Shown piece by piece: positions 1 through 49,468 of a stretch of 64,000 nt of DNA (position 1 is its first letter; the number at the start of each line of letters is the position of its first letter). Location: positions 62,001 through 126,000 of the forward strand of contig MU401461.1 in NCBI GenBank assembly GCA_022579005.1. The letters are read 5' to 3'. This stretch comes from Poronia punctata. Lineage: Eukaryota; Ascomycota; Sordariomycetes; Xylariales; Xylariaceae. Made by a program: the position numbers and the translations under genes. Under the pieces are notes generated by a model, which had not been told where the DNA came from, searched no databases, and was given only the letters and a program-made list of their open reading frames with translations.

Positions 1-1495
1 CACCAACTGTACCACACTGTGGCGGATAGACGAATTGGAGTGTGTGGCTGGCTTCTAGTCTAGTCCTAGAAAACTTGGCTTAAACCTAGGAATCCATGCG
101 TCCGTACGAGAGTTGCAAACAATTCTTTCAAACGTCGATGACTTGCATTCTGGTGTGTCTTGTCGCGGATGTTAATTGGGGGATGGGACGGCCGTTGGTG
201 GGGTAGGTGTGCGTTCAGCTTCGTAAGCTAACGTCATTCCTTTTCAAGGTGTACAGCCAGACAGGCGTGACAGGGAAACCCAATTACCGGCATGACATTC
301 CCTGTTTACAGGATTTCTCGGAAGTCGGTTGATTCGGGTCATCCTCGCATAACAAGAGCGTCCCAGGTTTAATTGTTACGTTGTAGGGGTTATGGTAGAC
401 ACCTCAGATATGGCCGTGTGTAAGCGTGGCTGCTCAACTGAGGGCTATACCTAAATTCATTATATCGTACGTAGGTGGTAGATAGGTGAGTGTTAGGTGA
501 GTGTTGGTGCTGTCCACCTTGGTAACTATGGAATGTCTGCGACGGTGTATGTGATTTGAAAACGAACCGGATCTACGCATAGTGTAGGTTAGATGGTGGT
601 GATTATAAGGACTTTCCATGGTCGGGGAACCTCTTCATTCATACAGACGTGCCATGACAAACATGTCTGCTAGAAATCTAACCTCACGTTAGTTAAGTTC
701 ATATATAACCTATTGACAAGCAAAAAGTAGATAACACTTACCACGCAAGATTTCGTCCGTTCCGGCGGAAAACACAAAAACGACCTACCTACCGTCAGGT
801 AAACCATCTCATATGTAAACAGATGGGCATTACAAATACACCCAAGGTTACCTACCTCGGCACATCAATGAAACCATCTACAGCATGTTTCATTACAACA
901 TATCGATAGCGTCATCATATACTGTTTTCACCAAAGATCTACCTACGAGTAATAGTATCCCCCGTCGGTGGTTGATTTCTCGATCCGGACATATGGGCGC
1001 GGGGTTGGCAAGAGCCGATTGGAAAGAAGACAAATAGGCGAACCACGCCGGCATGATCCGTGGTAGGTACTACATTACCTATATACGTGTAGAAGGGCCG
1101 CTGGTTATCTATATTATTTTACCTTGACCGTACGCAAGGGCAAGTGAGACATCCCAACAAACCCGATTTGAAATCAACCTGCCCATATACCTACTTAACC
1201 TACCTCACTCGTATACTCTTAGCTACACAAATCTTGAATCAATAGCCCGATTCCTTGTTTTCTTTTTGTGCACGGGCAAAAGGCAGGGGTTTACTCGGCG
1301 TGGAAGATGTGACCGGAGTCCGGAAAGCACGTAGGTTGGGCAAAAACAACAGAGTTGGTAGGTTAGGTAAGGTAGCGTCGGTTTGTTTATGAAGGGTATC
1401 TTGCCCCGATAAATATACCTGTCCTTCATGGACCGATAACACTTAGTATTTGCGCGCCACGATAGAGAGAGACCTCTTGTCAAATCCGAATAATC
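1..1495. other. Intergenic, no gene seen
   Basis: I find no supported gene here. Both strands carry only short open frames without fungal coding character or family similarity. The stretch is rich in TACCTA/TAGGTA words and holds one copy of the octamer TACGAGTA (944-951). It probably includes the promoter of the downstream carboxylesterase. Confidence 0.6.
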
Positions 1496-46351: not shown

Positions 46352-47809
46352 CCCTCGCTACGTCACGTCCAAGTCGACAGGTTAACCTTCTGCCTAATAA
46401 TCCCAAGACCACAGTGAGGACATCGCTTACGAGTAGGCGCAAGGCAAGATGTAGATAGATGGCCACTAATGCCCCCCTGGGCCCCTTCCCCCCACGATGA
46501 CACGAAAACTTCCGATTAACTCATGGAAGCGACTTTTTTTTTTCCATCAGGGAGTTCTGTTGTCGGGTTCTTATAGGTAGGTAGATCCGGAGTTCTAGCC
46601 GCGGGAATCGTTTCGCAACTCCATAGAAAGTAGGTACAGGGGTTGGCATAGAGTTCGACTTAGGTGCCTAACATAGGCCTCATATCATGGACACCCTCTG
46701 GATATACCGATCTGTGAATTCATTTTCTTAACCTAGTAGGTATCCTTCCACTTCCCAACTACAGATTCGGACTCTCAGGCGGGTGGGTGTATTCTGTAAG
46801 ACCCTGACTGGTATTCTCCTCGGCAGAAGTAGTGAAGCGGGAGTCATAACAAGCGGCCGAGTTTGGCTTCGTTGGCTTCTTACAGGGAAACTCATCCGAA
46901 ATCAAATAGAACCGGACTCACGGTAACTTTACTTACGTGAGTGACGAAAAAGTGTCTCCTGTTGTTCCATTCCCTGCCGGGCTCCAAGTCTCATTGCATA
47001 GAATGATTAGGTAGGCACGCAGACAGGAGGGGCATGATAGTTATCGAAGCTCAAATCTACTTACTTACCATCTAACCTACTCTAGTTACGTATATTTACT
47101 TGACACAGCAGATTTCTACCTTCCCAGAAGCATCCGCATGAGGGGGAAAAAAAAGAAAAAAAAGAACAGAGACTTATTTATCATCCCACTCTTTTACAAG
47201 CGTGCAACAGTTAGAACGAACGTACAACCTTGTAGGTAGAACCGAGGCCAGCTAAATAAGAAGAAAAATCCGGGTACGCTTGATATGATGTACCTACCTT
47301 ATAACCTACCTCTTCGGTCCCGATATAAAGGATTCTGGAGATTTCCGTAGCGTAGGATGAGCTAGGTATCCGGGAATCTCCCGTATAGTTTCGTGATGCA
47401 TATTTCACCAAACAAAACAGTTCCATGCGATATCTCGCGTGTTATTAAACAAGTTGCCTCGGAACTTAATTTTGACTGCCCACCACGCAAACAAACGTGC
47501 AACTACAAAGTCGCTTTCCCATCTGCAACTTCGAGATTCCACATCCATAAAGACACACTTTGTTTTACAAGCGTGGGATTCATACACGTAAAAAGTACCT
47601 ACTTTCGAGATAGTTACGAGTAGCATATGACCTCTTTAGTGCTTATGTAGTTGTTCGATACCAAGATGTCTACCAGGCCGAGAAAAAGAAATGCGTAGGG
47701 ATGATGACTAGCCCGGTGAGTCTTGGTATTGGACCGGTTGTTGACGAATTACACATTTCAAAGCAAGCAAAATGTTAAAATAATCAAGAGCCGAGAAAAA
47801 AAGAAGAAG

Positions 47810-47819
47810 AAAAAAAAAA
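47810..47819 (-). terminator. Possible Pol III terminator (T run) of tRNA-Lys
   Basis: A run of ten T on the minus strand begins 44 bases after the mature 3' end of the tRNA. It is the first strong T run downstream, so it is the likely RNA polymerase III stop. Confidence 0.45.
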
Positions 47820-47862
47820 GGAAGGCTGCTATCTCCAGTTAACTGAAGAGCATCAGGAATTG

Positions 47863-47996
47863 AGCCCAATGCGGGGGTCGAACCTATGTCGATTTGTTAG
47901 TCAAATGCGAGCAAGAATTTTTGATTTTTTGAAAATCAACTTACCCGCAACCTTGAGATTAAGAGTCTCACGCTCTACCGATTGAGCTAACCGGGC
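47863..47996 (-). tRNA. tRNA-Lys (anticodon CTT) interrupted in the T-arm by a 61-nt GT-AG insertion
   Basis: Read on the minus strand, 47996-47945 gives GCCCGGTTAGCTCAATCGGT, AGAGCGTGAGACTCTTAATC and TCAAGGTTGCGG; 47883-47863 gives GTTCGACCCCCGCATTGGGC and T. Joined, these 73 nt fold perfectly: acceptor GCCCGGT/ATTGGGC, D-stem GCTC/GAGC, anticodon stem TGAGA/TCTCA around loop CTCTTAA (anticodon CTT, Lys), and T-stem GCGGG/CCCGC around TTCGACC. The anticodon loop has no intron at the usual 37/38 site. Instead 61 nt (47884-47944) split the T-stem after its fourth base. The A box (TAGCTCAATCGG) is intact, and the B box GGTTCGACC survives in the DNA because the insertion ends in G. CCA is not encoded, as normal for a nuclear gene. 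Confidence 0.9.
47884..47944 (-). other. Spliceosomal-type intron within the tRNA-Lys T-arm
   Basis: This 61-nt insertion begins GTAAGTTGAT, has a branch-like TTGACTAACAAAT ending 15 nt before the end, and ends CGACATAG. That is the same donor, branch and acceptor pattern as the protein-gene introns in this window, and unlike archaeal or yeast tRNA introns, which sit one base 3' of the anticodon and are cut by the tRNA-splicing endonuclease. Confidence 0.75.
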
Positions 47997-48472
47997 AGAT
48001 GTTGTTAGGTTTGCCAACGTTTAGTTCGAATCAAGTCAGTCCAATGTCGTGGAAAGAAAGAAATCATGTACCTACACGTAATTACACGTAAAAATAATCG
48101 GTGCATGATTTTAAGTTACAGGCTAGTCGAGTCTAGGTCGATGACTAATTCCAGAAGAGTAAAGTTTCATGTGTAAAATAGTACGTTATGTACCTGACTT
48201 GGGTTAGTACATGGTAGTAGTGAATATAGGCGCATCCATAAATAGGATCACGAAAGGGGCCATGGATGACCTATATTCATCGAGCTTCTGCTTTTGAATC
48301 AAGATCCAAGCTATACCACGCCGATGTGTTCTTATTGCTAATAAGATTTCGAAGATCAGAGCTTATCTCGGTCTCTTATAAAGGGAAAACGCCACATGGG
48401 AATTAGTCGAAATAGGTAGGTGCTTGGTTTATGCCGATGCGTTCTGACATCTACTGCAAGGTTTGAAACATC
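47997..48472. other. Intergenic between tRNA-Lys and the GH114 gene
   Basis: This is the 5' flank of the tRNA and the promoter of the GH114 gene. Two TTACACGTAA-like words lie at 48075-48095. No other gene seen. Confidence 0.5.
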
Positions 48473-49468
48473 ATGGCGGAGACGAGGATCGAAGATGATG
48501 TTCAAAAGGAAGCCGAATCGCACGTCGATCGCGATGATAACTTTATAAGGACGCCGTCTGGTTCCCCTGCGGTTAAGAATCTCTTTTCTCGTAAGAAGGT
48601 CATCGTCATAATCTCCATAAGCATCATGATTGCTGTCACTGCTCTGGCATTGGGCCTGGGACTCGGCCTCGGTCTCGCAGACGCAAGACCGAACCGTAAC
48701 TCGGCGTCATCTAGCAATTCGAAGGCCGACTTCGACCTCGGCCTGACCCCCGGAACAACATGGGACTACCCGCTCGGCTTCTCCCTGACTACAAAAAATG
48801 TCGACAAGGACACTCAATTTTACGTTGTCGACCTGGAGAACACATCGAAGAATGACATTGCGGACCTCATAAATGCCGGCCACACCATCGTATGCTACTT
48901 TAGCGCCGGCAGCGTCGAATCCTATCGCGACGATGCGGGCGACTTCCCAGATGAGGCGATTGGCAAGACGCTCGATGGCTGGGATGAAGAGCAATGGCTG
49001 GACGTACGCAACGAGGGCGTCCGCGACGTCATGACGCAACGTATTCGGACTGCCGTCGACAAGGGCTGCCAGGGCGTCGATCCGGACAACGTGGACGGAT
49101 ACCAGAACGAGTCGGGCTTCGACATGACCGAGGACGACGCGGTCGACTACGTGAGATTTCTCGCCGAGGAGGCCCACTCGCAGGGCCTGGCCTTTGGGCT
49201 CAAGAACGCCGGCGACATCGTGGAGCAGGTCGTCGATGTGGCTGAGTGGGCCATCAACGAGGAGTGCGTCGAGTGGGACGAGTGTGACAGCTGGGCGCCT
49301 TTCATCGATGCCGGCAAGCCCGTCTTCCACGTCGAGTACACCGAAGATGACGATGCCACGAGCGTCAGCCCCTCCCAGCTCAAGGAGGCTTGTGCTGCGG
49401 GTGGCAACTCGGACTTTTCCACCATTGTGAAACATCTGCCTCTAGATGACTGGGTTGTTAAATGTTAA
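48473..49468 (+). CDS. Membrane-anchored GH114 endo-alpha-1,4-polygalactosaminidase-like glycoside hydrolase
   Basis: This is a single-exon, 331-residue type II membrane protein. The layout is an acidic cytosolic start (MAETRIEDDVQKEAES), one transmembrane segment with a GLGLGLGLA end (VIVIISISIMIAVTALALGL, about residues 43-67), a Ser/Asn linker, then a TIM-barrel GH114 domain. Family blocks are TTWDYPLGFSL, AGHTIVCYFSAGSVESYRDD, FPDEAIGKTLDGWDEEQWLD, GCQGVDPDNVDGYQNESGFD, GLAFGLKNAGDI, WAINEECVEWDECDSW and KPVFHVEY; the Asp and Glu residues expected for catalysis are within the VDPDNVDGY and NEEC/EY blocks. GH114 enzymes such as Aspergillus Ega3, also membrane-anchored, cut partly deacetylated galactosaminogalactan. 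The rest of a galactosaminogalactan cluster is not in this window. Role in wall or biofilm polymer processing is inferred from family. Confidence 0.9.
   Translation: MAETRIEDDVQKEAESHVDRDDNFIRTPSGSPAVKNLFSRKKVIVIISISIMIAVTALALGLGLGLGLADARPNRNSASSSNSKADFDLGLTPGTTWDYPLGFSLTTKNVDKDTQFYVVDLENTSKNDIADLINAGHTIVCYFSAGSVESYRDDAGDFPDEAIGKTLDGWDEEQWLDVRNEGVRDVMTQRIRTAVDKGCQGVDPDNVDGYQNESGFDMTEDDAVDYVRFLAEEAHSQGLAFGLKNAGDIVEQVVDVAEWAINEECVEWDECDSWAPFIDAGKPVFHVEYTEDDDATSVSPSQLKEACAAGGNSDFSTIVKHLPLDDWVVKC

What the first reader, a model, noticed from the sequence alone, without database searches (positions are those of the whole stretch)
47863..47996. tRNA-Lys(CTT) gene split in the T-arm by a spliceosomal-looking intron
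Seen: removing 61 nt (47884-47944, minus strand) yields a flawless 73-nt tRNA-Lys; the insertion starts GTAAGT, has TGACTAAC, and ends ATAG, with the anticodon loop itself uninterrupted. Known: nuclear tRNA introns in fungi normally sit at position 37/38 and are removed by the Sen endonuclease, not the spliceosome. Inference: a Pol III transcript may be spliced by the spliceosome, or a second excision path exists, or this copy is kept silent. The insertion spares the DNA B box, because its last G completes GGTTCGACC, so transcription could continue. Such a constraint would favour insertion at exactly this spot.
Basis: partly seen in the sequence, partly recalled or inferred. Interest (0 to 1): 0.88.

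Follow-up and report, generated by a model that had tools for sequence, protein, structure and literature searches.

The report
Spliceosomal introns inside tRNA-lysine genes
A xylaria-like fungus appears to carry messenger-RNA-type introns inside many of its lysine tRNA genes, which would make the spliceosome a tRNA-processing machine there; the sequence evidence is strong but no RNA data were available.

Summary
It is not a lone oddity. The searches found 15 tRNA-Lys(CTT) copies in the genome: 6 uninterrupted and 9 interrupted at the identical spot. Eight interrupted copies have letter-identical exons, while their inserts (59-66 nt) have largely drifted apart. All 9 inserts keep GT[A/G]AG[C/T], a branch-point motif with its A 13-17 nt from the end, and a final AG, like the mRNA introns of the same genome (15 of 19 examined were kept). 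Exons that stay fixed while inserts drift argue against pseudogenes: the introns are very probably removed and the tRNA used. All 14 undecayed copies also share a structured 3' trailer with strong compensatory change, which might time precursor folding (inferred, weak). I know of no tRNA gene with a spliceosomal intron, and ten literature searches listed none. No RNA data and no relatives' DNA were available, so splicing itself is inferred.

The parts
47863..47996 (-). interrupted tRNA-Lys(CTT) gene
   Evidence: RF00005, 49.8 bits
47945..47996 (-). exon 1: tRNA positions 1-52, with A box and anticodon CTT
   Evidence: letter-identical in 14 of 14 places found with up to 3 mismatches allowed
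47978..47989 (-). A-box region (tRNA positions 8-19)
   Evidence: sequence; positions of the boxes as in PMC3978253 passages
47884..47944 (-). 61-nt U2-type spliceosomal-like intron between tRNA positions 52 and 53
   Evidence: GTAAGT, CTAAC with A 13 nt before the end, ATAG
47939..47944 (-). 5' splice site GTAAGT
   Evidence: GTAAGT in 7 of 9 copies, GTGAGT and GTAAGC in one each
47896..47900 (-). branch-point motif CTAAC (A at 47897)
   Evidence: spacing within the range of the 15 kept mRNA introns
47884..47885 (-). 3' splice site AG
47874..47884 (-). B box GGTTCGACCCC, whole in the unspliced DNA because the intron's last G stands for G52
47863..47883 (-). exon 2: tRNA positions 53-73, U68 variant
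   Evidence: identical in the 9 interrupted copies
47947..47952 (-). P1 5' strand GGTTGC (tRNA 45-50), predicted to pair with trailer 47824-47829
   Evidence: RNAfold of the spliced sequence with trailer; not in the best fold of this copy's unspliced sequence; exon side invariant, so no covariation test is possible
47865..47872 (-). P2 5' strand GCATTGGG (tRNA 64-71), able to pair with trailer 47850-47857
   Evidence: 100% of cells paired in 11 distinct rows; 2 of 8 pairs vary, on one side at a time
47850..47857 (-). P2 3' strand CCTGATGC in the trailer
47832..47849 (-). P3 trailer hairpin TCTTCAG-TTAA-CTGGAGA
   Evidence: 97 of 98 cells paired in 14 copies; 7 of 7 pairs with changes on both sides
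47824..47829 (-). P1 3' strand GCAGCC in the trailer tail
   Evidence: RNAfold of the spliced sequence
47810..47819 (-). T10 run, likely Pol III terminator, 43 nt past the tRNA end
   Evidence: first T5+ run at 38-51 nt in 14 of 14 copies

Best explanation
This is one of nine tRNA-Lys(CTT) genes, in the genome of a fungus probably of the Xylariales, that carry a short U2-type spliceosomal intron between positions 52 and 53. SHOWN by sequence: the shared insertion site, the splice signals, the frozen exons against drifting introns, whole A and B boxes, no run of more than four Ts before the terminator, a T run after a structured trailer. INFERRED: Pol III transcribes tRNA, intron and trailer from the internal promoter; the spliceosome removes the intron in the nucleus; only then can the T arm form, so enzymes that need it (RNase P, RNase Z, exportin, T-arm modifiers; their needs partly recalled) act after splicing, and the product joins the ordinary tRNA-Lys(CUU) pool that reads AAG. 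The trailer can pair with the 3' side of the acceptor and T stems and with the variable loop, which might hold the precursor in a non-tRNA shape and favour splicing before trimming (inferred, much weaker).
For: 15 copies found: exon-1 53-mer at 14 places, all with 0 mismatches although 3 were allowed, reversed-pattern control 0; exon 2 plus trailer start at 15 places; 8 full interrupted copies plus a ninth with a 1-nt exon insertion. A looser tRNA-Lys(CTT) pattern finds only the same 14. 9 of 9 inserts have GT[A/G]AG[C/T], YTRA with A 13-17 nt from the end, and AG; 1 of 200,000 shuffles does. Own-genome control: of 19 gaps between Ras-family exons 15 were kept, and 15 of 15 have CTRAY with A 13-22 nt from the AG, a motif not used to place them. 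Donors are stronger than in those mRNA introns: GTAAGT 7 of 9 against 4 of 15, p 0.033. Inserts have drifted: 5 of 36 pairs align better than at least 99.7% of 300 shuffles (z 2.8-4.7), the rest weakly or not. Between the 8 interrupted loci compared over about 10 kb each, 0 matches lie outside the gene region, longest match 232 bp. A T-arm intron blocks Pus4 in a red alga (PMC9602550, abstract and passages), in line with a splice-first order. AAG outnumbers AAA 169 to 76 in 11 window ORFs.
Against: No transcript data of any kind; 6 uninterrupted copies could by themselves feed the tRNA pool, so need is not shown. U6 of this genome, the classic Pol III host of such introns (recalled), is uninterrupted in the 1 hit found. 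T-run avoidance inside the introns is not significant (TTTT seen 1, expected 2.2, P 0.31), and T content does not differ from mRNA introns (p 0.44). The introns are more A-rich than the mRNA introns (p 0.0005), which I cannot explain. L010 has CTAAG, not CTAAY, as its branch motif. One copy (C43) looks decayed. Gene conversion could also keep exons alike. No relative's locus could be compared.
Confidence: 0.85

Rival explanations
1. Disrupted, silent tRNA copies (pseudogenes); the 6 intact genes do the work.
For: Six intact copies exist. One interrupted copy (C43) does look decayed: extra C in exon 1, degenerate trailer. [quoted passage not shown]
Against: Here 9 of 15 synonymous genes have the insert, at one spot. 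8 of 9 interrupted copies have no exon change although inserts have drifted; splice signals are kept in 9 of 9; the trailer hairpin keeps pairing in interrupted copies too; with 3 mismatches allowed no mutated copy appears (copies with gaps, such as C43, escape that search).
Confidence: 0.06
2. The insert is excised by the tRNA splicing endonuclease (Sen) or another tRNA-specific nuclease, as in red-algal and nucleomorph tRNAs, and the GT-AG look is incidental.
For: Red-algal and nucleomorph tRNAs have T-arm introns, many nucleomorph ones without a defined BHB (PMC9602550, PMC4090602, PMC3978253); the boundary here is ambiguous over four positions, including 53/54 used in one C. merolae gene.
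Against: All three spliceosomal signals with mRNA-like spacing in 9 of 9; BHB geometry in 0 of 9 copies over four boundaries (one copy, L013, has a full 4-bp central helix without flanking helices), but the same scan also fails on 3 of 3 ordinary introns of this genome, so this is weak; apart from the splice signals the inserts share only traces of common ancestry.
Confidence: 0.06
3. The loci act as DNA elements (TFIIIC-binding or boundary sites), and the RNA does not matter.
For: A and B boxes are whole in the DNA of the interrupted copies.
Against: Acceptor stem, anticodon arm and T-stem 5' strand, outside the boxes, are equally frozen apart from base 68; the trailer shows RNA-type compensatory change.
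Confidence: 0.03

Closest known systems
Spliceosomal introns in U6 snRNA genes of fission yeast and red basidiomycete yeasts (recalled, not from a call)
   Same: mRNA-type intron inside a Pol III-transcribed structural RNA gene; short, GT-AG, branch motif; proposed origin by reverse splicing
   Different: Host gene is a tRNA with internal promoter in multiple dispersed copies, some with and some without the intron; the U6 hit of this genome is uninterrupted
Ectopic T-arm introns of Cyanidioschyzon merolae and Guillardia theta nucleomorph tRNAs (PMC9602550 abstract and passages; PMC4090602 section 5; PMC3978253 passages)
   Same: Intron in the T arm, 53/54 in one C. merolae gene; Pus4 action on the T arm blocked while the intron is there
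   Different: Those inserts are 3-24 nt (G. theta) or 11-69 nt (C. merolae), attributed to splicing endonuclease and BHB motifs in C. merolae and of unknown excision in G. theta; here the signals are spliceosomal and the B box is preserved
Canonical 37/38 nuclear tRNA introns
   Same: Present in the same genome, for example three tRNA-Lys(TTT) genes
   Different: Different site; Sen-type excision by a ruler mechanism (PMC4090602)

Membership tests
U2-type spliceosomal intron | GT...AG ends with U1-complementary donor | tested here: met
   9 of 9 GT[A/G]AG[C/T]...AG
U2-type spliceosomal intron | branch-point motif near the 3' end at the spacing used in this genome | tested here: met
   YTRA, A 13-17 nt from the end in 9 of 9; CTRAY at 13-22 nt in 15 of 15 kept mRNA introns, 4 of 19 gaps dropped as doubtful, 2 of those 4 with no YTRAY and one with it 5 nt from the end
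U2-type spliceosomal intron | excised by the spliceosome as a lariat | not testable with these tools
   no RNA data
tRNA-Lys(CUU) gene | cloverleaf, anticodon CTT, consensus elements after joining | tested here: met
   RF00005 49.8 bits unspliced; 68.2-70.3 for the 6 uninterrupted copies; fold
tRNA-Lys(CUU) gene | Pol III internal promoter and T-run terminator | tested here: met
   sequence signals only: A and B boxes whole in DNA; T5+ at 38-51 nt in 14 of 14, no inner run above 4
Sen/BHB-type tRNA intron | position 37/38 | tested here: not met
   insert lies at 52/53 in 9 of 9
Sen/BHB-type tRNA intron | bulge-helix-bulge at the junction (ectopic type) | tested here: inconclusive
   0 of 9, but the scan also missed 3 of 3 ordinary introns
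SINE or other mobile tRNA-derived repeat | graded divergence along the whole copy and a shared longer body | tested here: not met
   exon 1 is 0 mismatch at 14 of 14 places; no match outside the gene region between 8 interrupted loci

The most novel reading that the evidence does not exclude
In this fungal lineage the spliceosome is a regular tRNA-maturation enzyme: more than half of the genes found for the main lysine tRNA depend on it, and a conserved, compensating 3' trailer acts as an RNA switch that keeps the precursor in a non-tRNA fold until the intron is out, tying the supply of the AAG-reading tRNA to spliceosome capacity.
Probability: 0.2. Interest if true: 0.95.

Novelty: new variant of a known kind. 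Interest (0 to 1): 0.87.

Why it matters
tRNA introns and mRNA introns are treated as two separate worlds with separate enzymes. A tRNA gene family with spliceosomal introns would show that the two can cross, that the spliceosome can process a structured Pol III transcript and leave a working tRNA, and that an intron can invade a tRNA if it spares the DNA promoter. Interrupted and uninterrupted copies side by side with nearly the same product make a natural experiment on intron gain or loss, on splicing of Pol III transcripts, and on the order of tRNA processing. It also warns that a common tRNA finder misreads such genes: ARAGORN missed 4 of 8 interrupted copies and gave a wrong structure for the other 4, while it read 6 of 6 uninterrupted ones.

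Tried and rejected
Relatives: pattern scans for the interrupted T arm found 0 in viral contigs and 0 in genome contigs; the trailer pattern found 0 in each. Those collections hold viral, bacterial and archaeal contigs, so this says nothing about fungal relatives. Source of the intron: the C96 intron as DNA query finds only itself. Other tRNA isotypes with a T-arm insert: GTAAGT-N37..67-AGGTTCGANNCC gave 7 places, 6 of them this family and one site beside a tRNA-Leu on C456 that I could not read as a tRNA; other donors were not scanned. The tRNA list (63 rows) is incomplete: a tRNA-Pro missing from it turned up. Known RNA family for the trailer: none in the 6 stretches searched.

The trailer switch is the weak part. 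Tail P1 is absent from the four group A intronless copies (C4, C30, C200, C206). In the best fold P1 appears in 7 of 8 spliced sequences of interrupted copies but only in 4 of 8 unspliced ones (my reading), and not in the unspliced window copy. P2 varies on one side only. With P2 enforced, the alternative is more stable than the enforced cloverleaf in 7 of 8 unspliced copies (+2.2 in C133), but also in 7 of 8 spliced ones and 2 of 6 uninterrupted ones, so folding does not single out unspliced RNA. For this the odds of the novel case were lowered from 0.25 to 0.2 on checking. U68 occurs in 9 of 9 interrupted and 1 of 6 uninterrupted copies, but the copies are related, so this is no independent test. 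My first bulge-helix-bulge scan used a wrong geometry and is replaced. The batch ARAGORN run returned nothing for some intact loci; the per-locus rerun read them and is the one cited.

Full report
What is there. The minus strand of window 47863-47996 carries a tRNA-Lys(CTT) gene with a 61-nt insert at 47884-47944. Rfam's tRNA model finds the whole 134 nt at 49.8 bits, with the insert between the T-stem strands; ARAGORN finds nothing in the window nor in the 2-kb piece around the gene with introns allowed. Linear and standard tRNA numbering coincide here, so the GT-AG boundary lies between G52 and G53, inside the T stem. Repeated letters make boundaries 51/52 to 54/55 give the same product.

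The family. A search of the whole genome (45.05 Mb, 573 contigs) with the exon-1 53-mer, allowing 3 mismatches, gives 14 places, all with 0 mismatches; the reversed pattern gives 0. Exon 2 with the start of its trailer gives 15 places, 0 mismatches with 2 allowed. Six copies are uninterrupted (C4, C30, C117, C200, C206, C270) and eight have an insert of 59-66 nt at the identical site (window, C8:254736, C14, C20, C77, C84, C96, C133). The fifteenth (C43) has a 91-nt insert at the same site (length), an extra C in exon 1 and a degenerate trailer, and is probably decaying; Rfam still gives it 36.8 bits. A looser tRNA-Lys(CTT) pattern finds only the 14. Counts from these searches are lower bounds.

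The inserts look spliceosomal in every respect tested. Donors: GTAAGT 7, GTGAGT 1, GTAAGC 1. Ends: ATAG 7, TTAG 1, AAAG 1. Branch motifs: CTAAC 5, TTAAC 2, CTGAT 1, CTAAG 1, with the A 13-17 nt from the end. The whole set appears in 1 of 200,000 shuffled inserts. As a control I placed introns in 19 gaps between Ras-family exons of the same genome by reading frame and protein alignment, requiring GT or GC and AG ends but no branch motif. Four were dropped as doubtful: L119 (a tie), L126 and L130 (no branch motif, weak alignment), L132 (332 nt, motif 5 nt from the end). In the 15 kept, CTRAY lies 13-22 nt from the AG in 15 of 15, but only 4 of 15 donors are GTAAGT, so the tRNA introns have stronger donors (p 0.033). 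They are also more A-rich (p 0.0005), while T content does not differ (p 0.44).

Why they are probably not pseudogenes. Exon 1 is identical in 14 copies and exon 2 differs only at base 68: C in five uninterrupted copies, T in C270 and the nine interrupted ones. The inserts have drifted: of 36 pairs, 5 align better than at least 99.7% of 300 shuffles (z 2.8-4.7), which suggests a shared origin for at least five copies (C14, C96, C20, C8:254736, window) followed by long drift. Between the 8 interrupted loci, compared over about 10 kb each, 0 matches lie outside the gene region and the longest match is 232 bp. Keeping 73 letters on both sides of a drifting insert points to selection on the joined product. 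Gene conversion of such short tracts cannot be fully excluded.

Transcription. A and B boxes are whole in the DNA; the intron's last G stands in for G52 of the B box. In 14 copies no run of more than four Ts lies before the terminator, and the first T5+ run is 38-51 nt past the tRNA end. In 49 other tRNA rows the median is 19 nt, and 3 have none within 150 nt. T-run avoidance within the introns is not significant on its own (P 0.31).

The trailer. All 14 undecayed copies share CAATTCCYRATGC, a 7-bp hairpin (P3) and a short tail before the T run. P3 pairs in 97 of 98 cells over 14 copies. Over the 11 distinct stems, P2 and P3 together pair in 99.4% of cells against 87.4% in shuffles (0 of 500 as high), and 7 of 7 P3 pairs change on both sides; slid registers give 35-55%. 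P3 is thus an RNA structure under selection. CCYRATGC can pair with tRNA 64-71 (P2, one-sided changes only), and the tail GCAACC with tRNA 45-50 (P1): in the best fold of 7 of 8 spliced sequences of interrupted copies, but of only 4 of 8 unspliced ones. With P2 enforced the alternative beats the enforced cloverleaf in 7 of 8 unspliced precursors, by 0.2-7.0 kcal/mol, but also in 7 of 8 spliced ones and 2 of 6 uninterrupted copies. The idea that the trailer delays trimming until splicing is therefore only a hypothesis.

Mechanism. Best reading: Pol III makes a precursor of 175-189 nt plus leader, the spliceosome removes the intron, the T arm then forms, and RNase P, RNase Z and modification follow. 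That a T-arm intron blocks a T-arm enzyme is known for Pus4 in C. merolae (PMC9602550, abstract and passages). The Sen complex is thought to measure the distance from the tRNA body to the splice sites (PMC4090602, section 5), a body that cannot form here before removal (inferred). AAG outnumbers AAA 169 to 76 in 11 long window ORFs, so this tRNA is in demand.

Host. The neighbouring GH114 protein (window 48473-49468) has its best named matches in Xylariaceae, so the fungus is probably of the Xylariales; this rests on one protein. The one U6 hit is uninterrupted.

What is known. A review says that insertions in the D or T arms of eukaryotic tRNA genes are mostly found in one of many synonymous genes and so are supposed to be pseudogenes, with nucleomorphs and C. 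merolae as exceptions (PMC4090602, section 5 read; its text has no word beginning with spliceosom). Here more than half of the synonymous genes found have the insert. Ten full-text searches listed no tRNA gene with a spliceosomal intron, judged by titles and starts of abstracts; two searches listed 25 of 35 and 15 of 770 papers, and the library lacks most subscription journals. Passages only were seen of PMC3978253, PMC5709842, PMC11782384 and PMC10085805. mRNA-type introns in fungal U6 genes are recalled, not from a call.

Verdict. A real, multi-copy, selected feature. That these are functional tRNA genes with spliceosomal introns I hold at 0.85; with the trailer switch as well, 0.2.

Noticed in passing
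window 47824-47862 and the same place in 13 other copies: Structured 3' trailer with a compensating hairpin on the 14 undecayed tRNA-Lys(CTT) genes, interrupted or not; no Rfam family in the stretches searched. It may be a functional small RNA or a precursor switch.
   Followed up: partly
L103 (C43, about 386-560, minus strand): Ninth interrupted copy, 91-nt intron, extra C in exon 1 and degenerate trailer: a copy that seems to be decaying (or carries an assembly error).
   Followed up: partly
tRNA base 68 across the family: U68 in 9 of 9 interrupted copies and 1 of 6 uninterrupted ones (C270); weakens the acceptor stem (G5-U68). C270 may be an intron loss or the pre-gain form.
   Followed up: partly
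C4, C30, C200, C206 trailers (L025, L029, L031, L032): Four uninterrupted copies share a different tail, AGCCTCA (three) or AGGCTCA (one); by eye it could pair with the anticodon arm, perhaps by chance.
   Followed up: no
L009-L013, L017, L018 and window 47000-49000: ARAGORN misses 4 of 8 interrupted genes and gives wrong ends or a false anticodon-loop intron for the other 4, so such genes are easily hidden in annotations.
   Followed up: yes
nine tRNA introns against 15 mRNA introns: tRNA introns are clearly A-rich (39% A against 23%) compared with mRNA introns of the genome; unexplained.
   Followed up: no
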